Of a stretch of DNA of 32,576 nt, positions 19,787-32,576 are shown piece by piece (the stretch's first letter is position 1; the number at the start of each line of letters is the position of its first letter). A program made the position numbers and the translations under genes. The DNA is taken from NCBI GenBank assembly GCA_004299145.1, contig SCQD01000212.1:1-32576 (forward strand), read 5' to 3'. The notes beneath the pieces are model-generated. The model saw only the letters and a program-made list of their open reading frames with translations. It had not been told where the DNA came from and searched no databases. The stretch comes from Methylococcaceae bacterium. GTDB lineage: Bacteria > Pseudomonadota > Gammaproteobacteria > Methylococcales > Methylococcaceae.

Positions 19787-20650
19787 GGTTTTTCTCCCCA
19801 TGGGGTACGGTGTGGTTGATTGGGTAGCTTGAATACTGGAGATGACGGCATCCAGTGAGCCCAGCGCATCCGCCAGGCCAAAATCGACGGCTTTTTGCCC
19901 GACCAGCATTCCGCCGCGGGCGCCGGCGATTTGTTCCGGCGTTTTGCCGCGGTTGTCGGCGATGGCGCCGATGAATACCGCCGCCAGGTCGTCCACCAGA
20001 GTCTGGTAGACGGCGCGGCCTGGTTCGGTGCCATGATCCGGGCGCTTGTCGGGGGATTGGCTGGAGACGATTTCCAGCGGTGCGCTTTCGCTTTTCGGCG
20101 GTATGGACAGCACGACGCCGATGCTGCCGACCAAGGCCATGGGGTCCAGAACAATGCGCTGGGCGCCGGAAGCCAGCAGGTAGGCGGCGGATGCCGCTTG
20201 TCCGCTGACGTAGGCGGTCGTGGGCTTGCTAAGGCCCCGGATCATCGTCATCGCTTCATGCACGCCGGTGGTTTGGCCGCCGGGTGAGTGAATGTCGATT
20301 ACGATGTGCGAGACCGCCGGATTGGCGTCGGCGGCAGCGATGTCCTGCATGAATTGCTCCAGCGAGGTGGCGCCGGAAATTTCGGTGAACAAATTGGCTT
20401 TGGGGAATATCGGCCCGGACAGCGGAACAACCGCCACGCTGCCGTGCAGGGTGACGTCACGGGTATTTTCCAGGGGGCGGCCCAATCGCAGCGCCAGGGC
20501 TTCCGGGTCCTGGTTGTCGCGCTTGGCCACGCTGATAATGGTGTCCATCGCCTCGCGGGTGATGGCCCAGGGTTCGCCCAGCATGATGAAATCCATGGCC
20601 GTGCGCCTCAAGAAGCCTGAGTCATTCCGCGAGAACGCGGCGGCTTTCAT
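19364..20650 (-). CDS. S49-family head maturation protease with fused scaffold
   Basis: This is a 428-aa protein from the ATG at 20650, whose TGA overlap with the portal gene suggests coupling. A second candidate start at 20596 (MDFIMLGEPWAITREAMDTI) has GAGG nine bases upstream; the first 14 residues after 20650 come from a REP-like element. The protease domain spans about 60-285: PLSGPIFPKA, HIVIDIHSPGGQTTGVHEAM, the nucleophile region SGQAASAAYLLASG (Ser154) and IVSSQSPDKRPD with a likely catalytic Lys202. As in lambda gpC, it cuts scaffold and itself during prohead maturation. The C-terminal part (289-428) is the scaffold region. Confidence 0.88.
   Translation of the reverse strand: MKAAAFSRNDSGFLRRTAMDFIMLGEPWAITREAMDTIISVAKRDNQDPEALALRLGRPLENTRDVTLHGSVAVVPLSGPIFPKANLFTEISGATSLEQFMQDIAAADANPAVSHIVIDIHSPGGQTTGVHEAMTMIRGLSKPTTAYVSGQAASAAYLLASGAQRIVLDPMALVGSIGVVLSIPPKSESAPLEIVSSQSPDKRPDHGTEPGRAVYQTLVDDLAAVFIGAIADNRGKTPEQIAGARGGMLVGQKAVDFGLADALGSLDAVISSIQATQSTTPYPMGRKTMTTPTDQVYTAADLEKARETAHATGKTAGHAEGVAAEKARMAAIFALPEAQGREATAQTMALETDMSAEQIGKVLASLPAATPPPSGKTGVSEFEKHMQAIGNPKVGADTDNDDGDATAMKNIHSVMASIGLLRAPTTVQ
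20609..20647. repeat. REP-like element, copy B (at protease gene start)
   Basis: The plus strand reads caagaagcctgagtcattcc, then gcgagaacgcggcggcttt. It differs from copy A (23653-23691) at two loop positions only (agaa versus aaga). It has an inner stem CCGCG/CGCGG and outer arms AAGCC/GGCTT. It lies at the join of the portal stop and the protease start and encodes residues such as SRNDSGF in the N-terminal extension. Confidence 0.85.
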
Positions 20651-23158: not shown

Positions 23159-23491
23159 TTATCGCGCCCACTCCGGCACCTGCGTTTGCTGAATAAATAC
23201 CCTGGGGCCAGCGGCGTGCAGGATGCGGTAAAACTGCCGGGGGCTGATGCCGTACCTAGCACACACCTCATCCCGGTTGTTGCCACGGAAAGCGGCGATC
23301 ACCGCAGCGTCGCGGGTGGCGCGCCGGGCTTCCTTGAACGACGGCACGTAGAGGTTGCCTGCTCCCACTGACTGCTGCAACCGTTCGATCAGCCCAGCTG
23401 CCAGCGCTTGGGCGGCATCACTCCCCACGCCTTGCGCCATCGCGGATTCTTGCGCCAGTTCCGCCAGTAATGCCATGTCGCCGCCTACCAT
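23159..23491 (-). CDS. Mor-family transcription activator-like protein
   Basis: This is a 110-aa protein with the Mor/C DNA-binding layout. The N-terminal helical part (MALLAELAQESAMAQGVGSD, AQALAAGLIERLQQSVGAGN) is the dimerisation region. A GNLYVPSFKEARRATRDAAV strand/loop and a C-terminal helix-turn-helix follow (IAAFRGNNRDEVCARYGISP, then RQFYRILHAAG), the RDxAI-x-x-x-F-x-GxN...YGISxRxxYRIL pattern of that family. Mor activates Mu middle transcription. Here the gene overlaps the terminase end by 7 bases inside a late-type operon, so it might autoactivate or control head genes. The DNA-binding family is secure; the role is inference. Confidence 0.8.
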   Translation of the reverse strand: MVGGDMALLAELAQESAMAQGVGSDAAQALAAGLIERLQQSVGAGNLYVPSFKEARRATRDAAVIAAFRGNNRDEVCARYGISPRQFYRILHAAGPRVFIQQTQVPEWAR

Positions 23492-25599
23492 AATGCTGCT
23501 CCCGCTGTCTGCTCATTGATCGGATGTCCCCACGGCTTATCTTGGGTGGTGCTGTAGGCGATGGGGGATTGGGCTGCCGTCGGCGTTACCGCAGGCGGGG
23601 CGGTTGGTATTTGGGGGATGTCTGCGGTCATGGCTTTTTCCATGGCGGCTTTCAAGAAGCCTGAGTCATTCCGCGAAGACGCGGCGGCTTTGAGAGCAAA
23701 CAGCGCATTGGTCGATGGGGTGGGCGCCGGCGTCGGTTCCACGTCGGCAGGTTCCAGCATGGCGCGCAGTCTGGCCCATTCCCTGGCCGTTTTGCGGTGC
23801 ACGCGCAGCGCCGGATCGGGGTTGTGACTGGCGGCACAAGCATATCCCCAGGTGTCCAGCCCTTCGTTGTGTCGTCCACGCAGTTTGACGTAGCGATTTT
23901 GCAGGGGATCGTACACTTCGGACAGCAGTTGTTTGTAGTAGTCCAGCGGCAAGTCACTGGAGAACCGCACTTTCCGGGCACAGGCTTCGCGCTCGGCATC
24001 GCCGGCCAGGCGGTTGTACAGAGTGCTTTTGACGGTGTTGACCCCCACTTGCCACAGGGCGCAGCCTTTTTTGTCCACTTTTTCGCCCCACCGCACGTCT
24101 TGATAGGTGGGCCGGGCGCTCAGGATCGGACCGGCGAGGCGTTTGCTGCCCTGAATAGCCATCGGGCGGCGGATTTTTTTTTGCCGCACGAAGTGGTAAA
24201 CGGCGTGGGTGTGGTGGCCCATGGCGTCGATGGCGGCGGCTTCGACGTAGAGCACTTGGCCGTAGGCGTTTTCCAGCGGGGTGTTGAGGTGGGTGGTCAG
24301 ACGGTCCCACAGCGCTTCGTCTTCGGGGTCGCCGAACAGTTCAACCCAGTCGATGACGGCGCACACTTCGCCTTCGCCCCAGCCGAGTATTTGCGCGGAA
24401 AGGCGGTCGTCCTGTGTGTCGACGCCGGCAGTCAGTAGCAGGAAGCCGGGGGGGACGGTGCGCAGCCGGTAGTCTTCGGCGCGCTCTTGCAGGGTTTCCG
24501 GGCGGATGTCGCGGGTTTTGTCTTTCCATGTTTCGCCCAGGTGGGTGTTGATGAAGGTGCGTAGCTTGCGCTGGTCGCCTTGGGCGGCTTTCCATTCACG
24601 CGCCAGTTCTACCCAGGATGGACCCAGGCCGATGGCGGCATAGAGGGCGCTGAGGTGGTAGCCGCGGCGGCGGTGTTTGGGGTTTTTGGCCTCCCAGCGC
24701 CCTTGGGCCAGCATGCGCGGTTTTTCGTGTTCTTCGATCAGGCAGCCGTGGATTTCGCACACGTACCAAGCACGGTCGGTGTCGAGATCCCATTGCAGGT
24801 TTTTCCAGTGCAGCGGCTGGTATTCACCGCAATGGGGACAGGGCACGTGATAGTGCCGCTGGTCGGTGTCTTCGAATTCGCCGGCCACGACCGACGCGCC
24901 GTCGATGGTGGGGGTGGAGATGATGACCAGCTTGGAGTTGGGAAACGCTTTGCAGCGACCGCGCGCCAGGGATACGGGGTCGCCTTCTTTGCCGACTTCG
25001 GCGGGAAAGCGGTCGGCGTCGTCGAGCATGACGTAGCGGGCGGTGCGTTGGGCGTAGCTGTTGGGGCTGTTGCCGCCGGCCAGGAATAGCATGCCGCCGG
25101 GGAATTCTTTGAGGTCTTTGCGATTGCCGGCATCGCGCGATTTTGCCCCTTGCATGACGCGGTTGACGGCGTCGCTTTCGGTAATCATGGGGTTCAGCTT
25201 TTGCTGGACCCAGGCGTCGCGCGATTCTTCGGTGGGCAGCAGCACCATGGTGGGCGCCGGCGCGTGGTGCATGATGCAGCCAATCCAGTTGATGGTGCAT
25301 TCGGTGACGCCCACTTGGCTGGATTTCATGATGACGATTTCTTGCACCGGCGAGTGCGGCGATAGGACGTCCATGATTTCTTTGAGGTAGGGTGTGCGCG
25401 AGGTGCGCCACAACCCCTTTTCTGCTGAGCCTTTGCCGGATAGCCAGCGGTAGCGGTCGGCCCACGTGGATACCGTGAGCTTTTCGCGCCGGGCTATATG
25501 GCGCGCCAAGCGTTGGTAGCAATAGCTTTTGCCCACCTTGAGCAGCCGGTAGACGCGCTTGTCTTTGGGCTTGCGGGCGGGGCGGGCTGTGGTGTTCAT
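23485..25599 (-). CDS. Terminase large subunit (GpA family)
   Basis: This is a 704-aa protein of the lambda gpA type. The ATPase has a Walker A-like VIMKSSQVGVTE (about 89-100), then Walker B YVMLDDADRFP (189-199) and an FLAGGNSPNSYAQRTARYVM motif. A zinc-like C-P-H-C...C-E-I-H-G-C pair lies at 254-286, and the nuclease domain begins LLLTAGVDTQDDRLSAQILG (about 387) with further acidic residues. It pumps DNA into the prohead and cuts at cos sites. The C-terminal tail (after about 620) contains a REP-derived AAASSRNDSGFL and Pro/Thr-rich residues. The ATGA start overlaps terS. Confidence 0.95.
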   Translation of the reverse strand: MNTTARPARKPKDKRVYRLLKVGKSYCYQRLARHIARREKLTVSTWADRYRWLSGKGSAEKGLWRTSRTPYLKEIMDVLSPHSPVQEIVIMKSSQVGVTECTINWIGCIMHHAPAPTMVLLPTEESRDAWVQQKLNPMITESDAVNRVMQGAKSRDAGNRKDLKEFPGGMLFLAGGNSPNSYAQRTARYVMLDDADRFPAEVGKEGDPVSLARGRCKAFPNSKLVIISTPTIDGASVVAGEFEDTDQRHYHVPCPHCGEYQPLHWKNLQWDLDTDRAWYVCEIHGCLIEEHEKPRMLAQGRWEAKNPKHRRRGYHLSALYAAIGLGPSWVELAREWKAAQGDQRKLRTFINTHLGETWKDKTRDIRPETLQERAEDYRLRTVPPGFLLLTAGVDTQDDRLSAQILGWGEGEVCAVIDWVELFGDPEDEALWDRLTTHLNTPLENAYGQVLYVEAAAIDAMGHHTHAVYHFVRQKKIRRPMAIQGSKRLAGPILSARPTYQDVRWGEKVDKKGCALWQVGVNTVKSTLYNRLAGDAEREACARKVRFSSDLPLDYYKQLLSEVYDPLQNRYVKLRGRHNEGLDTWGYACAASHNPDPALRVHRKTAREWARLRAMLEPADVEPTPAPTPSTNALFALKAAASSRNDSGFLKAAMEKAMTADIPQIPTAPPAVTPTAAQSPIAYSTTQDKPWGHPINEQTAGAALW
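23653..23691. repeat. REP-like element, copy A (inside terminase large subunit)
   Basis: The plus strand reads caagaagcctgagtcattcc, then gcgaagacgcggcggcttt. It is near-identical to copy B (20609-20647) and related to copy C (17906-17942). It has an inner hairpin CCGCG-aaga-CGCGG and outer AAGCC/GGCTT arms. It is translated in frame near the end of the terminase (encoding AAASSRNDSGFLK). Confidence 0.85.
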
Positions 25600-26159
25600 G
25601 CGGCTTCGTCCAGCTCTCTGGCGCGCTTGAGCAGTGCGGCGTTGAGGGTGTCGATGATGGACGAGACCGCTTCTTCAATGGCGCCGCGGGCTTCGTCCAG
25701 CGTTTTGGCGGGCAGCACCACCGGCGCCAGTTGATCAGGAAGGTTATCCAGCAGCGACAGGAACAGTGCGGCCAGGTCGTCCAGCACGAAATCGACGTCG
25801 TCACGCGCTACCAGGTTGCCCGCCATTTTTTCGACTTCCAGTCCGGCTCTGTCGGCATCGCTGCGCATTTTGCGCGCGCGGTCGAGGCTGAAGGTTTTTG
25901 ATATTTTGTCGGCGTCGCTGTCCACTGCTGCCTGTGCTGGTTTGGCGGCTTTGGCTGCTCTGGCTTCGGCGTGGCGCTGCATGACGTCGATGCGGTTTTC
26001 GTCCGCGGTGGCTTTGATGCGTTCCAGGCTGGCGGCAACATCGACCAGGCCGGTTTCGTTCAGCACCAGGCGCCCATCTTGCTTGAGCTTGGTGACGTAA
26101 CTTTTTGCCCAGCCTTGGCTGGCGGCAAACTCGGCTTGGGTGAGGTGTTGTGCTGGCAT
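25596..26159 (-). CDS. Terminase small subunit
   Basis: This is a 187-aa protein (MPAQHLTQAEFAASQGWAKS). The N-terminal winged/helix-turn-helix segment (LTQAEFAASQGWAKSYVTKL, then KQDGRLVLNETGLVDVAASL) is the DNA-recognising part that binds cos. A central linker follows (RHAEARAAKAAKPAQAAVDS) and a C-terminal helical region (FVLDDLAALFLSLLDNLPDQ, DEARGAIEEAVSSIIDTLNA) that contacts the large subunit. Its size is like lambda Nu1 (181 aa). Residues 94-121 (RARKMRSDADRAGLEVEKM...) correspond to an 86-bp stretch that is repeated in inverted orientation at 26329-26414. Confidence 0.85.
   Translation of the reverse strand: MPAQHLTQAEFAASQGWAKSYVTKLKQDGRLVLNETGLVDVAASLERIKATADENRIDVMQRHAEARAAKAAKPAQAAVDSDADKISKTFSLDRARKMRSDADRAGLEVEKMAGNLVARDDVDFVLDDLAALFLSLLDNLPDQLAPVVLPAKTLDEARGAIEEAVSSIIDTLNAALLKRARELDEAA
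25795..25880. repeat. 86-bp inverted duplication, arm inside terS
   Basis: I compared it base by base: the reverse complement of 25795-25880 equals 26329-26414 with no mismatch. Both ends diverge at once (26415 g against c; 26328 t against c). In terS this arm encodes RARKMRSDADRAGLEVEKMA and the next eight residues. Confidence 0.9.
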
Positions 26160-26328: not shown

Positions 26329-26414
26329 CGCGCGCGCAAAATGCGCAGCGATGCCGACAGAGCCGGACTGGAAGTCGAAAAAATGGCGGGCAACCTGGTA
26401 GCGCGTGACGACGT
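26329..26414. repeat. 86-bp inverted duplication, arm upstream of terS
   Basis: This is the perfect inverted partner of 25795-25880. Here the terS codons run on the plus strand: the frame can be followed from about 26248 (GDDHSDAAFLVAQAETTPAV, AQSASVF), then RARKMRS... to VARDDVSWV and a TGA at about 26424. No start codon in this frame follows the in-frame TGA at 26245-26247, so it is best read as a truncated, displaced copy. The rest of 26160-26467 holds no convincing gene. A minus-strand ORF 26165-26419 is made partly from the antisense of this arm. Confidence 0.9.
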
Positions 26415-26467: not shown

Positions 26468-26578
26468 CTAGATGCTTTTGGTTTTGCGATTGCCGCGCGC
26501 GGCGCGGATCGCGTTAACGCGCCCTTTGTGCCGGGTGAATTTTCCACCCTTGCTCCAGGCTCCTCCTGCACTGGCCAT
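26468..26578 (-). CDS. 36-aa highly basic protein downstream of the radical SAM gene
   Basis: The minus strand shows a perfect AGGAGG five to six bases before ATG (26578-26576). The ORF reads MASAGGAWSKGGKFTRHKGR, then VNAIRAARGNRKTKSI, ending with TAG at 26470-26468. About 11 of 36 residues are Lys, Arg or His, with no hydrophobic core, suggesting a nucleic-acid-binding or accessory peptide. It begins 9 bases after the radical SAM stop, so it is likely cotranslated. No family is recognised. Confidence 0.65.
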   Translation of the reverse strand: MASAGGAWSKGGKFTRHKGRVNAIRAARGNRKTKSI

Positions 26579-26587
26579 ATCAACCTC

Positions 26588-27823
26588 CTACATTTGCAGC
26601 GTTTTTACCGGGTTTTTGTCGATGTCCCAGAACACGTCCCCGGCATTGACGTGGTCTTTCGTATACACCAGCAGGGGCAGGTCGTCGCCCTCGCCGGTAT
26701 AGAGGTACGGCTGTTTGGCATCATCTGTGCCGTTGGCCAGAAACAGGTTATCTATCGCCAATGGCGTGGGGTAGGCGCTGATGTCGTAAAAATATCGGTT
26801 CACTTCACTGAGGGTGCGCACCTTGGGTTCTTGGCCGGTGGCGTTGTAAATCGTGCGGCGAAAGGGTTTCAGAAACTCTTTGAACGCGGATGTTTGCACG
26901 TCCAGGCCGATGCTGGCCCAAGCGTCGAAATGGCGGAAGCCGAACAATTGCGGTTCTCCCGCTTGTTGTTCGCATCGTTCCAGGTAGGCAAAAAATCCGT
27001 CCGCCGTGGGATAGAACGGGTACCCCAAGGCAAAGTAGCTGTCCCAAAAGCCGTTATGGGTGGCTTTACCGTGCTGGAATACGTTGATGCCGCTGTTTTT
27101 CAGTTGGCTTTCGTACATTTCCAAGTAACTGTCGGGTTTCCTGCGTTTGGCATAGGCGATTTCGGTAGTGAATTTGCGCTTAGCCGATACGGACATGTTG
27201 TTGATTTGATCGGGCGTCAGATGCAATGCACCATTCCAAACATGCCGGACGTCCAACGCTTTGAGCTGCTGGATCAGGCCGTTGAAGTCGTCCCACCACC
27301 AGTGGATCAGCGGGTTTAAGCCGACGATAACGAGGTGACCGCACGCTTTTGCGCGGCGAATGAAGTCCAGCCGGTGGGTATGACCGGGTGCGCCGGGTTC
27401 TGCCTGTCGCAACAGGTCTTCGTTGTCGCTGGTGAGGCTGACGTAAATCATGGTCGGCGCGTCTTTGAGGATGATGGCTTCGTCTTCCGGTTTGCCGCCT
27501 TTGGTTTGGTAGCACATGCGCGCGCCGGCTTCGCCCAGCGCCTCATGCGCGGCTTTGAATACTTCGATGTTGCTGGCCGCCAGGGGGTCGGAGTCGTTGG
27601 ACATCAGTACCGGGTAGCCGCGGGAGAGCAACCAGCTTTCGACGGTGTTGGTTTCGCCGCTTCGCAGTTTTTTGAGTATCCGCACCAGGCTTTGCATATC
27701 CACTCGCCGATCTGGCTTGTTGAGATTTGCAAAACAGTAGAAACAGCCGTGGCTGCATGCGTTGAAGCCGAAGTGCATGGGGATGGGCGATACCAGGTAT
27801 TCGCCGCAGTAGGGTCGTAGCAT
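26588..27823 (-). CDS. Radical SAM protein, spore photoproduct lyase-like
   Basis: This is a 411-aa protein. It has the radical SAM CxxxCxxC at Cys23, Cys27, Cys30 in NACSHGCFYCFANLNK, which should hold a 4Fe-4S cluster and cleave S-adenosylmethionine. The context GFNACSHGCFYC, followed by PVLMSNDSDPLAASN, matches the spore-photoproduct-lyase-like subgroup, many of which act on nucleic acids. The long remainder is rich in aromatics (NPLIHWWWDDFNGLIQQL; WDSYFALGYPFYPTADGFF). Its ATG overlaps the ParB-like stop (ATGA), so the two are coupled. A DNA- or RNA-modifying role is inferred from subgroup and neighbours; the substrate is unknown. Confidence 0.85.
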   Translation of the reverse strand: MLRPYCGEYLVSPIPMHFGFNACSHGCFYCFANLNKPDRRVDMQSLVRILKKLRSGETNTVESWLLSRGYPVLMSNDSDPLAASNIEVFKAAHEALGEAGARMCYQTKGGKPEDEAIILKDAPTMIYVSLTSDNEDLLRQAEPGAPGHTHRLDFIRRAKACGHLVIVGLNPLIHWWWDDFNGLIQQLKALDVRHVWNGALHLTPDQINNMSVSAKRKFTTEIAYAKRRKPDSYLEMYESQLKNSGINVFQHGKATHNGFWDSYFALGYPFYPTADGFFAYLERCEQQAGEPQLFGFRHFDAWASIGLDVQTSAFKEFLKPFRRTIYNATGQEPKVRTLSEVNRYFYDISAYPTPLAIDNLFLANGTDDAKQPYLYTGEGDDLPLLVYTKDHVNAGDVFWDIDKNPVKTLQM

Positions 27824-28527
27824 CAGGTTGCATCCTCTGTGGTCAGGTCGTTGAAGTAGCCGATCAGTTTGTCCAGGACCTCGTAGTCATACTTGAGTTT
27901 CAGCTTGCGCTTGGCGTCGCGAAACGCTTGGTAGACCGGGCGCGGGCAGTTGTCGATGAGCAGCGGCACAGGCAGGCCTGTCGACTTGGGTTCCTGGGCT
28001 TTTTCCGGGACGATTGCCGGGTTTTTGGGGACGGGTTCAGGATTGGGGGCGCCGGCGCCGTCCTTCATGCCGTCTTCGCTTCTCTCTGGGGGGGCGGTTT
28101 GTGCGCGGGTTTGCAGGCCGTCATCGAACAGGTCTTCCAGTTGTTCTTGCCAGCGGTCGCTGTCGAACCCCAGCGTGTCCAGGTCCAGACCCTGGGAGTA
28201 GACAAAATCCATTTCCTCCCGCAGCCGCTCGACATCCCAACCGGACAGTTCGGCCAGACGATTGTCGGCGATGATGTACGCGCGCTTTTGTGCATCGGTC
28301 AGTCCCATCAGGCGGATGCAGGGGATTTGCTGCATGCCCAGTTCTCTGGCGGCCAGGACGCGGCCATGTCCAGCAATCAGCCCGCCGTCGTCGTCGATCA
28401 GCACGGGGTTGGTCCAACCGTATTCGTGGATGCTGGCCGCCAGTTGCGAAATTTGTTCGTCGCTATGCGTGCGACTGTTGTTTGCGTAGGGCGTCAGCGC
28501 GTCGATAGGGAGTGTTTCGATTTTCAT
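27823..28527 (-). CDS. ParB/Srx-fold protein
   Basis: This is a 234-aa protein from the ATG at 28527, which has GAGG in gaggaaaaccatg on the minus strand; a longer frame to 28578 would overlap the upstream gene and lacks a ribosome site. It begins MKIETLPIDALTPYANNSRT. The ParB N-terminal core includes HSDEQISQLAASIHEYGWTN, then PVLIDDDGGLIAGHGRVLAA (the GHGR box) and IPCIRLMGLTDAQKRAYIIA. The C-terminal part is a Pro-rich linker (APNPEPVPKNPAIVP), then a charged helix (FRDAKRKLKLKYDYEVLDKL). Such phage ParB-like proteins often accompany methyltransferases. Nuclease, NTP-binding or partition activity cannot be told apart from sequence. Confidence 0.88.
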   Translation of the reverse strand: MKIETLPIDALTPYANNSRTHSDEQISQLAASIHEYGWTNPVLIDDDGGLIAGHGRVLAARELGMQQIPCIRLMGLTDAQKRAYIIADNRLAELSGWDVERLREEMDFVYSQGLDLDTLGFDSDRWQEQLEDLFDDGLQTRAQTAPPERSEDGMKDGAGAPNPEPVPKNPAIVPEKAQEPKSTGLPVPLLIDNCPRPVYQAFRDAKRKLKLKYDYEVLDKLIGYFNDLTTEDAT

Positions 28528-28543: not shown

Positions 28544-28813
28544 TTAATTTTCAAGGCTTTCGGCGTTCTGACGGCCATGCAGCAGCGCGTGCAGCGTCAC
28601 CTGCACGCCTTCTTCGCGCCGGTAGTACTGCCGGCCTGTATCCATGATGATTTCACCGCTTTCCGCCACCACCTGCACAAAGGCGGGCTTACCGAAGGCT
28701 TGGTGGATGGCCGTGAGAAATTCCGCCGTTGCCGGCTGTTCTGCCTGAATGCGGCGCCAAGCGGCTTGCCTGGCGTTGTTGACGGTGTGTACATCGCTGT
28801 TTACGGTTGTCAT
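28544..28813 (-). CDS. Small protein upstream of the ParB-like gene
   Basis: This is an 89-aa protein (MTTVNSDVHTVNNARQAAWR). The central part AEFLTAIHQAFGKPAFVQVV, then AESGEIIMDTGRQYYRREEG suggests a small alpha/beta domain with a beta hairpin. It stops 16 bases before the chosen ParB start and its own ATG overlaps the stop of the preceding short ORF (ATGA). The function is unknown. Confidence 0.65.
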   Translation of the reverse strand: MTTVNSDVHTVNNARQAAWRRIQAEQPATAEFLTAIHQAFGKPAFVQVVAESGEIIMDTGRQYYRREEGVQVTLHALLHGRQNAESLEN

Positions 28814-29031
28814 TTTTCACAAACCCTTATTTTTCGCGGGGTGTTACGGTGTATACGGTGTGTACGGTCGTTTCCCGTATGCGCGCGGGATTTTTTTATT
28901 TTGCGGCTCACGTTTTTTGCCTTTGCGCGTATGGGCGCGCGCGTTGACCGTAAACACCGTCTACACCCTAGAGCGGCGCGGGTTTCGACCGTATACGCGA
29001 CCGTACATATGGCCGTATACACCGTATACAT
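28810..29031 (-). CDS. Possible short basic ORF across the repeat array
   Basis: This is a 73-aa ORF whose ATG overlaps the primase stop (ATGA) and whose stop overlaps the start of the 89-aa gene (ATGA). It begins MYTVYTAICTVAYTVETRAA and continues with an Arg/Lys-rich stretch (RAPIRAKAKNVSRKIKKSRA). The YTV repeats simply mirror the 9-bp DNA repeats. The double coupling favours translation, but the composition favours a by-product of the array. I treat it as doubtful. Confidence 0.35.
   Translation of the reverse strand: MYTVYTAICTVAYTVETRAALGCRRCLRSTRAPIRAKAKNVSRKIKKSRAHTGNDRTHRIHRNTPRKIRVCEK
28842..29029. repeat. Array of nine iteron-like 9-bp repeats (ACCGTATAC / GTATACGGT)
   Basis: On the plus strand, three tandem GTATACGGT-type units lie at 28842, 28851 and 28860. 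The inverted form ACCGTATAC lies at 28947, 28956, 28988, 29000, 29012 and 29021, with adjacent pairs exactly 9 bp apart. Units 28988 and 29021 are perfect ACCGTATAC; 28851 is its exact inverse. The left and right clusters form an imperfect long inverted repeat (28849-28868 with 29012-29031). Its position directly after a primase-helicase gene suits a replication origin or operator. Function is inference. Confidence 0.8.
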
Positions 29032-31397
29032 CAGCGCTCCAGTCCGTCGACGGCGTCGCGGAATTCTTCTACGCAGGCGGTTAACCAGCGTATTCGGGTT
29101 GTGTCCAGTGGCGGCTGAATGTCTTTTGGTAAAAACACGCGCACCGAGCTTCTTGATGCGCTGTTCATAATGGCGTCACATTTGTATTTCCCGCCAGATA
29201 ATCTAGCGATTACTGCCGATAATCTATTGTTTGCTGCTTGAAATCGCTCGCCTTCGCGATTACACCACCACCGATAAAACCGGTGGATATCGGTGGAGGC
29301 GGCCGGGCTTACCGGAATGCCCAGTATTCCTGCTGACCAGTCCAGCCAAAAACGCTCTGTGTTGTCCATGGATAGCTCGATCAGCGCATGTTTGGCGTCG
29401 GTGTCAGGCGGCGGTGTCCAGGGCTTGAAATCGGATATATCCAGGTGCAATAAATGGTGATGCAACGCTGCAATGCCGCCAGATTCTATTTCGGCAGTGA
29501 CTTCGTCATAGAGCGTTTGCGGGAGTTTTGGCGGGGTATGGACCACGGCATAACGGCGGTCATCTTTTTCCAACACCAGCGGCTGGTGTTCATTGGACAA
29601 AAAACAAATATTGACGTGGTTTCGCTCTTCGTGCGCCGCCACGTTTTTGGGGTTTATGCGTATCCAGTCGCCTGTAATTAGGCACTTAAGTTTGTTTTTT
29701 AAGTGGAATAACTCCAGTCTGGCGACAACTTCATCGGCAATCAGAAATAGTTTCCGACTGGCCCAATCGTTGAATTTGTCTTCAATGGCCGCTTGGTCGA
29801 TAACCCGCGCATATTCGCCATAAATGGCCGCGTAACTCTCAAAAAACAGGTTTTTTCCAACGCCCTGGGGGCCATGGAATACCAGGGCGGTTTTCATTTT
29901 TGCGCCAGGGTGCTGGACGGGATAGGCCAGCCAGCAGAGTACCCATTGATAAACGTGGTGGCCGTTGGGTTCCTCATTGCACATGTAGGACAGCAATTCC
30001 AACAACCGTTCGCATGAGCCCGAACGCGGCACGGTGGGCCAGGCGCCCCATAGGTTGCACCGCAGGCCCGCTTTTTCGGTGGGGTCGAACCCCACTTCAG
30101 TCAGCCGCACAGCGGGCTTTTCCGACCAATCGGGATGGCGCCGCATGTCGCGCCAACCGTGTTCCGGCAGTAAATCGGATACTGCTGCGCGGCTGACCAG
30201 CATATGTTCCTGGTGATCGAATAAAGTGCCGCCTTCGGCGGTATAAACCAGGCTATACCGGGATATACAATTATCAACCGATATAATCGACCTAAGCGCC
30301 GCTTTCCCCGCCCCCCCTGGGTTGTGGTTTCGCGCGGATGCGGTTTTAGCCCGCCAGTTCAGCGCGTCCAGACAGGCTTCGATTTGAGCGCGTACCGAGT
30401 GGGTGCCCTCGATAAGTTGCAAGTCGTTGAAATCGCTGATTTTTTTGTTTCCGCGATCTTCAGCGAAAACGGGCGCGATCCATGCGCCATTGACCGCCAG
30501 CGCGGCGGCCTGGGCGGAGTTGACGCCGGCGTTTTGTTTGCCGTGTTCCTCGCCGCAATGCATGCAGGTTGGATTGTTTACTGGCGTTAAACATTTGCAG
30601 GCGCGACATTTTTGAACGTGGTCATCGTCTGCGCAGATCAGGATTTTTGAAGCGCGATAGCGCTTTTTCAGCGCCTCGCAGACGGGCAACAGGTTGCCGC
30701 TGTCGAAGGCCACCGCGACACATAAACCGGTTGCGGCATGTAGGCTGGCAGCCGTGGCGTAGCCTTCAGCGACCAGGATGAGGCTGTTATTGGGCAATCC
30801 CAGCAAGTGGAAATGCCCTTGCTTGGCAACGCCCTGCGGCCAATATTCTTTGTTGCGCCCTTTTTTCTTGATGGCATCTGCGTCACCGTACAGCACTTGC
30901 AGGCCGTGAATTTTGCCGTCGACGTCCAGCATGGGGACCAGCGCGTTGCCTTTCGGCGTATAGCGCAAGCCGTAGCCTGGCACGCATTTTGTCTCCAGGT
31001 AGGCACATGTGCCTGATTCGCTGGCGTGCTTGCTCCAGCACTTTGCCGCAACGCGCGCGGCACGGTCAGCGGCTATCTGTCGTTCATGTTCGGCCTGGCG
31101 CTTGTTTTCCGAGATGCGGATTTTCAGTGCCGTTTTCTGTTCATCACTGAGCCGCTTGCTGTTGACCTTGATTTTTTGCGCGTTGTTGTCAGAACCGTAC
31201 CAAACGCCAAATGATCCGACGAGTAACCACTCGTTATCATTCCCCTGTATTTCATGCAGGCAATACCAGCCGCGTTTTTCCCGTTCACCATCAACTTTGC
31301 ACCGCACCATACGCCCAGTCTCGATGACGGAAACGATCAGACCAGCGCCTTTAAGCTGGTGGAGTGCGGAATCGTAATTGCAGGCGGTGACAGTCAT
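29031..31397 (-). CDS. Phage primase-helicase (TOPRIM + P-loop)
   Basis: This is a 788-aa protein for replication initiation. The N-terminal 100 residues are of unknown type. A TOPRIM-like core follows, with LILVAEGYATAASLHAATGL (Glu211) and KILICADDDH (255-260). A zinc-binding cluster has Cys264, 267, 269, 278 and 281 (CRACKC...CMHC). The C-terminal helicase has Walker A GPQGVGKN (509-516), Walker B FLIADEV (551-557), SNEHQPLVLEKDDRRYAVV and a PPKLP turn, the DUF5906/SF3-like pattern. It would synthesise primers and unwind DNA. The ATG is 26 bases downstream of the 42-aa ORF and lacks a clear Shine-Dalgarno. The stop overlaps the next ORF. Confidence 0.88.
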   Translation of the reverse strand: MTVTACNYDSALHQLKGAGLIVSVIETGRMVRCKVDGEREKRGWYCLHEIQGNDNEWLLVGSFGVWYGSDNNAQKIKVNSKRLSDEQKTALKIRISENKRQAEHERQIAADRAARVAAKCWSKHASESGTCAYLETKCVPGYGLRYTPKGNALVPMLDVDGKIHGLQVLYGDADAIKKKGRNKEYWPQGVAKQGHFHLLGLPNNSLILVAEGYATAASLHAATGLCVAVAFDSGNLLPVCEALKKRYRASKILICADDDHVQKCRACKCLTPVNNPTCMHCGEEHGKQNAGVNSAQAAALAVNGAWIAPVFAEDRGNKKISDFNDLQLIEGTHSVRAQIEACLDALNWRAKTASARNHNPGGAGKAALRSIISVDNCISRYSLVYTAEGGTLFDHQEHMLVSRAAVSDLLPEHGWRDMRRHPDWSEKPAVRLTEVGFDPTEKAGLRCNLWGAWPTVPRSGSCERLLELLSYMCNEEPNGHHVYQWVLCWLAYPVQHPGAKMKTALVFHGPQGVGKNLFFESYAAIYGEYARVIDQAAIEDKFNDWASRKLFLIADEVVARLELFHLKNKLKCLITGDWIRINPKNVAAHEERNHVNICFLSNEHQPLVLEKDDRRYAVVHTPPKLPQTLYDEVTAEIESGGIAALHHHLLHLDISDFKPWTPPPDTDAKHALIELSMDNTERFWLDWSAGILGIPVSPAASTDIHRFYRWWCNREGERFQAANNRLSAVIARLSGGKYKCDAIMNSASRSSVRVFLPKDIQPPLDTTRIRWLTACVEEFRDAVDGLER

Positions 31398-31669: not shown

Positions 31670-32576
31670 TCATGCTGTTGGCTTGTCGCTTGGCTTAGGG
31701 TGCATTGCTGCGTAATCCTCGTTGATTTCGCAGCCGACCCATTTGCGCCCCAGTTGTTGTGCCACTCTCCCCGTGGTCCCGCTGCCAAAAAATGGATCGA
31801 GCACGACATCACCCGGACGGCTACCGGCCAGAATGCAGGGGATAATCAGCGCGGGTGGGAAAACTGCAAAATGAGCGCCTTTGAACGGCGCGGTTGGGAT
31901 CGTCCACACGCTTCGCCGATTGCGTGTGTCGCCGTTGTAACTGACGTCTGCGCGCCCAGGACGATGCGTCCCATACCGCTGAGCAGGCGTCGTAGCCTGC
32001 TCGCGCTTATTGCAGGCGGCCCGCTTAAACGAGCAGGCGGCAGATGATCCACCACCCACTGCCGGTTCCCGTATCGCGTCGCAGTCGAAAAAGTAACGTC
32101 CGTTTTTTGACAGCAAAAAAATGTATTCATGCGCTCTGGTACAACGGTCTTTGACGGATTCCGGCATTGCGTTCGGCTTGTGCCATACCAAGTCCTGGCG
32201 CAGATACCACCCGTCGCTTTGCAGTGCGAATGCCACCCGCCAGGGGATGCCTATCAGATTTTTTGGCGGCAGGCCTGTCGAAACTTTTCCGCGCCCAATG
32301 CCGGTATTGCCGTGCAACGCCGCCGCGTGCTTACCACCGCTGCTTCCTCCCCACTTCCCGTCGTTTGCATAACTGTCACCCAGGTTCAACCATAGCGTCC
32401 CATCGTCGGCCAGTACGTCGCGCACCAGCGCGAAACACTCGATCAGCAAGGCAATGTATTCATCGGGGGTTTTTTCAAGCCCGATTTGGCGGGCGTCGCC
32501 GTAATCGCGCAAACCGTAATACGGCGGCGACGTTACGCACATTTGCGCTTTGATGCCATGGTCGATCATTGACTGG
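31670..32576 (-). CDS. DNA methyltransferase, N4-cytosine or N6-adenine type (5' end cut)
   Basis: At least 299 residues are visible; the frame stays open to the right edge and the start is outside. Beta-class motif order is seen: catalytic motif IV TSPPYYGLRDYGD early (about 13-25), then LADDGTLWLNLGDSYANDG, GIPWRVAFALQSDGWYLRQD, and the SAM-binding motif I VLDPFFGSGTTGRVAQQLGR near the C-terminus (about 257-276). SPPY is usual in N4-cytosine and also some N6-adenine enzymes. It would mark phage DNA, perhaps against host restriction. No cognate endonuclease is visible in the window, so it looks like an orphan modification enzyme. Confidence 0.9.
   Translation of the reverse strand, partial: QSMIDHGIKAQMCVTSPPYYGLRDYGDARQIGLEKTPDEYIALLIECFALVRDVLADDGTLWLNLGDSYANDGKWGGSSGGKHAAALHGNTGIGRGKVSTGLPPKNLIGIPWRVAFALQSDGWYLRQDLVWHKPNAMPESVKDRCTRAHEYIFLLSKNGRYFFDCDAIREPAVGGGSSAACSFKRAACNKREQATTPAQRYGTHRPGRADVSYNGDTRNRRSVWTIPTAPFKGAHFAVFPPALIIPCILAGSRPGDVVLDPFFGSGTTGRVAQQLGRKWVGCEINEDYAAMHPKPSDKPTA

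What the first reader, a model, noticed from the sequence alone, without database searches (positions are those of the whole stretch)
26468..28527. ParB-like / radical SAM / basic-peptide cassette next to a phage methyltransferase and primase
Seen: a ParB/Srx-fold protein and a spore-photoproduct-lyase-type radical SAM protein are translationally coupled by an ATGA overlap. Nine bases later comes a 36-aa basic ORF with a perfect AGGAGG. An orphan DNA methyltransferase lies about 3.1 kb upstream. Known: SPL-type radical SAM enzymes act on nucleic acids, and ParB-like folds recur in phage DNA-modification contexts. Inferred: the cassette could make or protect a modified base, or act on RNA. Nothing in the sequence names the product.
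Basis: partly seen in the sequence, partly recalled or inferred. Interest (0 to 1): 0.75.

Follow-up and report, generated by a model that had tools for sequence, protein, structure and literature searches.

The report
Phage ParB–radical-SAM–small-peptide cassette
Many uncultured bacterial viruses carry the same small gene cassette beside their DNA-packaging genes: a DNA-clamp-like protein joined to a previously unrecognised family of free-radical enzyme and often a tiny basic protein. It most likely chemically alters the virus's DNA, and no published description of it was found.

Summary
The window rSAM protein (411 aa) has no match in 50,697 phage records. A degenerate codon pattern for its cluster motif, followed by profile searches, uncovered a divergent family in metagenomic viral contigs and prophages. 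Of 48 non-redundant loci with enough upstream sequence, 43 have a ParB-fold gene directly upstream, mostly overlapping; 4 more have it one gene away. Among 70 genome-collection rSAM loci only 7 have a ParB nearby, and those 7 carry the same ParB-rSAM arrangement. In relatives the cassette lies before TerS or between TerS and TerL, so it moves as a unit. The 36-aa ORF is real: 19/37 long-clade loci carry a small basic ORF right after rSAM (control gene ends 9/272), many starting MAxxGGxW. The nearest ParB domains are otherwise fused or coupled to DNA methyltransferases, once to Mom, on an intermixed tree, and ParB-MTase fusions occupy the same slot in related prophages.

Most likely: a ParB-guided, rSAM-catalysed nucleic-acid (DNA base) modification module. 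Main rival: rSAM modification of the small peptide. Chemistry, substrate and product are untested. No description was found in the literature searched, including a 2025 ParB-fold survey.

The parts
27823..28527 (-). ParB/Srx-fold protein, 234 aa: N-terminal ParB_N domain (GHGR motif), flexible linker, C-terminal helical segment that may be ribbon-helix-helix-like
   Evidence: PF02195 E 2.2e-6; phrog_620 E 2e-55, phrog_498 E 2e-50; model pLDDT 84; ParB/Noc Z ~13.5 for residues 1-94, C-terminus only weak matches to ribbon-helix-helix proteins Z 3-5
26588..27823 (-). radical SAM enzyme, 411 aa, founder of the family described here
   Evidence: PF04055 E 3e-12; phrog_13321 E 1e-10; model pLDDT 94, pTM 0.92; family alignment A2 of 44 rows
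27734..27757 (-). CSHGCFYC, the CX3CX2C [4Fe-4S]-binding motif (residues 23-30)
   Evidence: the three cysteines are invariant in 44/44 sequences
26468..26578 (-). 36-aa basic protein MASAGGAWSKGGKFTRHKGRVNAIRAARGNRKTKSI
   Evidence: conserved position and N-terminal motif MAxxGGxW in relatives
26584..26589 (-). AGGAGG Shine-Dalgarno of the 36-aa gene, overlapping the rSAM stop codon
   Evidence: sequence
31670..32569 (-). N6/N4 DNA methyltransferase, truncated at its N-terminus by the contig end; its homologue lies between ParB and rSAM in L060, L061, L063
   Evidence: PF01555 E 4e-51; homologues E 1e-90 to 1e-104 in those loci
29031..31397 (-). phage primase/helicase (Toprim + DUF5906)
   Evidence: homologues upstream of the cassette in nine related loci
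25596..26159 (-). terminase small subunit
   Evidence: phrog_57 E 1e-22
23485..25599 (-). terminase large subunit
   Evidence: homologous or analogous terminase downstream of the cassette in most loci

Best explanation
The cassette is a phage nucleic-acid-modification module, most likely acting on the phage's own DNA before packaging. SHOWN by sequence and comparison: a ParB-fold protein and an rSAM enzyme of an undescribed phage family are inherited as one translationally coupled unit beside the terminase genes, often with a small basic protein as third member, and the same ParB domain elsewhere carries DNA-modifying enzymes in that slot. INFERRED: the ParB-fold protein binds an NTP and DNA and recruits the enzyme, as it presumably does for fused methyltransferases; the single [4Fe-4S] cluster cleaves SAM to the 5'-deoxyadenosyl radical, which abstracts a hydrogen from a nucleobase or deoxyribose and so installs or converts a modification, protecting phage DNA from host nucleases; the small basic protein helps binding or is a regulator.
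For: Linkage: 43 of 48 testable non-redundant loci have ParB directly upstream (31 overlapping), 4 more within 1.1 kb, 1 lacks it; only 7/70 genome-collection rSAM loci have ParB, and those 7 show the same ParB-rSAM arrangement; 0/29 profile-found chromosomal rSAM loci have one within 1.5 kb. Co-inheritance: ParB and rSAM distances correlate, r 0.48, 0/5000 permutations. Unit mobility: cassette before TerS in the window and L097, between TerS and TerL in L060-L064, L069, L079. Partner swap: ParB domain 50-57% identical to domains of phage ParB-DNA-methyltransferases; prophages of the same host order with homologous TerL carry tandem ParB-MTase fusions upstream of TerL; L060/61/63 have ParB-MTase-rSAM-TerL; Psychrobacter phage Y8A has ParB coupled to a Mom homologue 39% identical to Mu Mom; on the ParB-domain tree partner labels intermix, including supported pairs Mom/MTase and rSAM/MTase.
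Against: No substrate, product or DNA binding was tested. ParB genes are common near phage terminases, so part of the linkage could be a shared insertion hot spot. The ParB-Mom pair is one case; five other Mom genes have no annotated ParB beside them. ParB partners also include an FkbM methyltransferase and a protein with a nucleotide-binding motif, whose substrates are unknown. The conserved small peptide could be the substrate. The ribbon-helix-helix reading of the ParB tail rests on weak matches.
Confidence: 0.5

Rival explanations
1. Peptide modification: the small basic protein, or other phage proteins starting with MAxxGGxW, is the substrate of the rSAM enzyme, in the manner of rSAM maturases of ribosomally made peptides; ParB is an NTP-dependent partner.
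For: Small basic ORF with strong Shine-Dalgarno right after rSAM in 19/37 long-clade loci; shared N-terminus MAxxGGxW with variable tail; a scan of viral contigs for Shine-Dalgarno plus MA[S/A/T/P]xGGxW, without rSAM information, returned 10 loci, 4 of them carrying the peptide directly after rSAM sequence, two of these from a member not seen before; the same N-terminus heads two larger proteins after rSAM in L110; peptide-acting rSAM enzymes are among the best structural matches, PFL activase Z 16.9 and SuiB Z 13.2.
Against: Absent in all 9 short-clade loci tested, and no MAxxGG ORF with a Shine-Dalgarno was found in the close relatives L060-L064; no conserved auxiliary cysteines; no recognition domain found; does not explain why ParB is shared with DNA methyltransferases.
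Confidence: 0.25
2. RNA modification: the enzyme acts on tRNA, rRNA or phage RNA rather than DNA.
For: RNA-acting rSAM enzymes (RlmN, Z 14.2; TYW1, Z 12.0) lie in the same structural neighbourhood.
Against: ParB relatives are joined mainly to DNA methyltransferases; no RNA-binding domain found; no conserved extra cysteines of the RlmN kind.
Confidence: 0.09
3. DNA repair: a phage photoproduct lyase relative that reverses a lesion.
For: SPL is a leading structural match (Z 15.2); phrog_9252 'DNA repair photolyase' weakly matches one member.
Against: No conserved cysteine beyond the cluster motif, whereas SPL needs its Cys140/141; translational coupling to a methyltransferase-type ParB is unexpected for a repair enzyme.
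Confidence: 0.06
4. Free nucleotide chemistry: the pair makes a modified NTP, with ParB as the nucleotide-binding half.
For: Viperins are structural neighbours (Z 13.9) and the weak PADLOC hit is pVip, E 0.003; ParB folds bind CTP, ATP or GTP (PMC12704722).
Against: Family is not closest to viperins by sequence; location beside terminase and swap with DNA methyltransferases favour a DNA target.
Confidence: 0.06

Closest known systems
Phage ParB-DNA methyltransferase fusions (phrog_498; PF02195 + PF01555)
   Same: Same ParB domain (50-57% identity), often the same place upstream of the terminase, phage origin
   Different: Methyltransferase domain is replaced by a separate, coupled rSAM enzyme; the ParB protein ends in a linker and a small C-terminal segment
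Mom DNA-modification protein (PF25680) coupled to ParB in Psychrobacter phage Y8A
   Same: ParB gene overlapping a downstream enzyme gene, next to TerS and TerL
   Different: Mom is not an rSAM protein; pairing seen once only
PA0069 / Rv2578c radical SAM families (NF033668, NF038135)
   Same: rSAM core, residues ~20-200, about 27% identity
   Different: Far below their cut-offs (36 bits against 430); chromosomal, no ParB neighbour in the loci examined; relatedness seen only over the core
Spore photoproduct lyase
   Same: CX3CX2C, similar barrel (Z 15)
   Different: No SPL catalytic cysteine, 18% identity over aligned residues, phage operon
phrog_13321 (phage rSAM family of unknown function)
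   Same: Best PHROG for the window protein and for all seven other members scanned
   Different: No annotated function; its own members' neighbourhoods could not be read here

Membership tests
Spore photoproduct lyase | CX3CX2C radical SAM motif | tested here: met
   invariant in 44/44
Spore photoproduct lyase | catalytic hydrogen-donor cysteine (Cys140/141; PDB entries of C140 mutants) | tested here: not met
   no other conserved cysteine column; best other 18/44
Spore photoproduct lyase | repairs spore photoproduct | not testable with these tools
   needs enzyme assay
PA0069 / Rv2578c families (NCBIfam) | curated score cut-off | tested here: not met
   36.3 bits vs 430 and 22.7 vs 360
Chromosome/plasmid partition ParB | ParB_N domain | tested here: met
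   PF02195 28.0 bits, cut-off 26.3; ParB/Noc Z ~13.5
Chromosome/plasmid partition ParB | full ParB family model TIGR00180, which goes beyond the N-terminal domain | tested here: not met
   25.8 bits vs 58.45; only ParB_N found by Pfam
Phage ParB-DNA methyltransferase | ParB and methyltransferase domains in one protein | tested here: not met
   window ParB has no methyltransferase domain; a separate methyltransferase lies 3.1 kb upstream
Phage ParB + base-modifying enzyme modules (broad kind) | ParB domain coupled to a downstream or fused nucleic-acid-modifying enzyme near the terminase | tested here: inconclusive
   architecture met; enzymatic activity on DNA not testable here
Radical SAM peptide maturase (RiPP) systems | small peptide gene next to rSAM gene | tested here: met
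   19/37 long-clade loci vs 9/272 control ends; 0/9 in the short clade
Radical SAM peptide maturase (RiPP) systems | SPASM/auxiliary-cluster cysteines (present in many, not all) | tested here: not met
   no conserved auxiliary cysteines
Viperin | membership by profile | tested here: inconclusive
   pVip E 0.0028 only; structural Z 13.9 among many rSAM folds

The most novel reading that the evidence does not exclude
A ParB-fold nucleotide switch loads a radical SAM enzyme onto phage DNA and installs a new radical-made base modification ahead of packaging, with the MAxxGGxW peptide as a third component. This would be a class of DNA modification unlike methylation, glucosylation, deazaguanine or Mom.
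Probability: 0.3. Interest if true: 0.92.

Novelty: new variant of a known kind. Interest (0 to 1): 0.74.

Why it matters
Phage DNA modifications are a main way to escape restriction and CRISPR, and each new chemistry has been useful as a tool. Radical enzymes are not on record as partners of ParB-fold proteins in what could be searched: a 2025 survey of the ParB fold lists methyltransferase and DUF fusions and its main text contains no occurrence of 'radical' (PMC12704722). This cassette is missing from the isolate phage collection searched yet recurs in metagenomic viruses and in prophages of cultured strains, so the question can be tested directly.

Tried and rejected
Single-sequence searches (tblastn in phages and plasmids, peptide-pattern scans in viral and genome contigs) found no ortholog; a degenerate codon pattern for CxHGCxYCFAN opened the family. 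A first blind scan for the peptide used a mis-framed pattern and is discarded; the corrected scan is. tblastn of a 42-aa relative of the peptide in phages: no match. No convincing solved structure by sequence. ParB-Mom as a general pairing: not seen by annotation in five other Mom loci. Two phage-record rSAM hits (L264, L265) have no ParB hit within the stretch fetched and score low, so are not counted as members. L044 and L135 were dropped from the counts. A joint ParB-rSAM complex prediction was not possible (single chains only). Literature searches for ParB with radical SAM in phages found nothing relevant.

Full report
What is there. The window is a whole contig (C249) of a 4.6 Mb, 353-contig genome, and the genes identified on it are phage genes. 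On the minus strand the order is DNA methyltransferase (cut by the contig end), primase, an 89-aa ORF, ParB-like gene, radical SAM (rSAM) gene, 36-aa ORF, terminase small subunit, terminase large subunit, a Mor-type activator, and late genes. ParB starts at 28527 behind AGGA; its stop overlaps the rSAM start by one base (TGATG). The 36-aa ORF follows after nine bases, with AGGAGG overlapping the rSAM stop codon.

Finding the family. The rSAM protein matches Pfam Radical_SAM and phrog_13321 but only resembles the chromosomal PA0069/Rv2578c families at about 27% over the core, far under their cut-offs. It has no tblastn match in 50,697 phage records, even at E 1. Scanning viral contigs for the codons of CxHGCxYCFAN gave 21 loci, about 16 with clear relatives of the window protein. 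An alignment of 11 (A1) then gave 166 relatives in viral contigs (79 loci kept) and 75 loci in genome contigs, the latter mostly chromosomal PA0069-type. Family members are about 20-44% identical to the window protein; invariant positions include the three cysteines, D79, R151 and P171. In 398 Pseudomonadota genomes searched with the profile, the window copy was the only clear full-length member, so the module is rare in sequenced genomes but recurrent in metagenomic viruses.

The linkage. Of 50 non-redundant members, 48 have enough upstream sequence; 43 have a ParB-fold gene directly upstream (31 overlapping, mainly -4, -8, -1 and -11), 4 have it one gene away, 1 (L086) has none. As control, 70 rSAM loci from the genome collection were examined with the same ParB profile: 63 have none in the flanks held, and the 7 that do have ParB immediately upstream of rSAM, usually two in tandem, as in the short-clade members from viral contigs. 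Twenty-nine further chromosomal rSAM loci found with the profile have no ParB within 1.5 kb. ParB and rSAM distance matrices correlate (r 0.48; 0 of 5000 permutations reach it), though shared phage ancestry contributes. A terminase large subunit follows on the same strand in most loci, in three separate sequence clusters. In relatives with homologous primase and terminase, the cassette lies before TerS (window, L097) or between TerS and TerL (L060-L064, L069, L079): it moves as a unit.

The third gene. After rSAM, 19 of 37 non-redundant long-clade loci have an ORF of 30-110 aa with net charge +5 or more and a Shine-Dalgarno, starting within 35 bases; the same test at 272 other gene ends gives 9; none of 9 short-clade loci has it. 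Many share MA(S/E/A)xGGxW followed by a basic stretch with R/K-F/Y and often RxGES. Divergence is concentrated at third codon positions (differences at positions 1/2/3): L069/L079 3/4/12, L075/L137 9/6/33, L070/L073 5/4/12. A scan of viral contigs for Shine-Dalgarno plus MA[S/A/T/P]xGGxW, with no rSAM information, returned 10 loci; four of them (L224, L228, L231, L233) carry the peptide directly after rSAM sequence, including a member not seen before (L228/L231), three are one unrelated protein family, and three are others. In L110 the same N-terminus heads two larger proteins, one with a NUDIX domain.

Structures. The rSAM model is excellent (pLDDT 94, pTM 0.92). Best solved matches cover residues 1-250: pyruvate formate-lyase activase Z 16.9 (rmsd 3.5, 224 aligned), spore photoproduct lyase Z 15.2 (3.7, 232), NifB 14.7, RlmN 14.2, viperin 13.9, SuiB 13.2. 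This shows an rSAM barrel but does not name a substrate; residues beyond about 320 are barely tested. Only the CX3CX2C cysteines are conserved, so neither SPL's catalytic cysteine nor auxiliary clusters are present. The ParB model has a firm N-terminal ParB/Noc domain (Z about 13.5, rmsd 1.4-1.9 over 91-92 residues), a disordered linker and a confident C-terminal helical pair with weak matches to ribbon-helix-helix proteins (Z 3-5; weak Pfam hints in one relative). That tail motif recurs in many rSAM-linked ParBs and differs in the Mom-linked and L033 ParBs.

What it does. Function is inferred from partner exchange. The window ParB domain is 50-57% identical to ParB domains of phage DNA methyltransferases, and in a spread of 60 ParB relatives about a third are annotated as DNA methylases or methyltransferases. 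In prophages of the same host order with homologous TerL, two tandem ParB-methyltransferase fusions sit upstream of TerL. In L060, L061 and L063 a methyltransferase homologous to the window's lies between ParB and rSAM. In Psychrobacter phage Y8A a close ParB is coupled to a Mom homologue, 39% identical to the Mu enzyme that modifies adenine. On the ParB-domain tree partner labels intermix: Mom_L036 pairs with MT_L271 (96/91) and rSAM-linked L081 with MT_L267 (97/85). This resembles a ParB adaptor serving interchangeable nucleic-acid-modifying enzymes, of which this rSAM family is a new one. Caveat: other partners include an FkbM-type methyltransferase (L274) and a protein with a GxxGxGKT nucleotide-binding motif (L035), with unknown substrates.

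Alternatives. The conserved peptide beside an rSAM gene is the classical arrangement of peptide-maturation systems, so peptide modification is kept at 0.25. RNA modification, repair and free-nucleotide chemistry are less supported.

Novelty. Searches of the paper library for ParB with radical SAM in phage context found no description, and the December 2025 survey of the ParB-CTPase fold reports methyltransferase and DUF fusions with no occurrence of 'radical' in its main text (PMC12704722). I call it a new variant of a known kind (ParB plus modifying enzyme), with a categorically new DNA chemistry as the open possibility.

Noticed in passing
window 25795-25880 and 26329-26414: Perfect 86-bp inverted repeat: a reversed copy of an internal TerS stretch lies between TerS and the 36-aa gene. 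Recent inverted duplication or assembly artefact; no alternative TerS reading frame was evident in the ORF list, but this was not tested further.
   Followed up: partly
window 20608-20647 and 23652-23691: 40-nt direct repeat, 95% identical, shared by the 3' end of the TerL gene and the start of the gene at 20650-19364.
   Followed up: no
L036 4992-6249: Psychrobacter phage Y8A: ParB gene overlapping a Mom gene (PF25680 E 2e-55) just upstream of TerS; a ParB-Mom pair.
   Followed up: yes
L274 1411-2753: Cyanophage MED4-184: ParB gene overlapping an FkbM-type methyltransferase gene (PF05050), another coupled ParB partner.
   Followed up: partly
L035 4959-6562: Pseudoalteromonas phage SL25: ParB gene followed by an overlapping gene for a protein with a GxxGxGKT nucleotide-binding motif, not annotated in the record.
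   Followed up: partly
L180 6791-9846: Faecalibacterium prophage: two tandem ParB genes, short rSAM, then an overlapping PLP-dependent enzyme (PF00291 E 5e-12).
   Followed up: no
L110 9206-10732 and 10734 onward: Two consecutive larger phage proteins (one NUDIX) begin with the same MAASGGxW N-terminus as the small peptide, suggesting a mobile N-terminal tag.
   Followed up: partly
L266 6539-9405, L268 5942-9917, L269 7287-10294: Tandem ParB-methyltransferase fusions upstream of TerL in prophages of the same host order.
   Followed up: partly
window 28544-28813: 89-aa ORF upstream of ParB without family hits and without homologues in the related loci.
   Followed up: no
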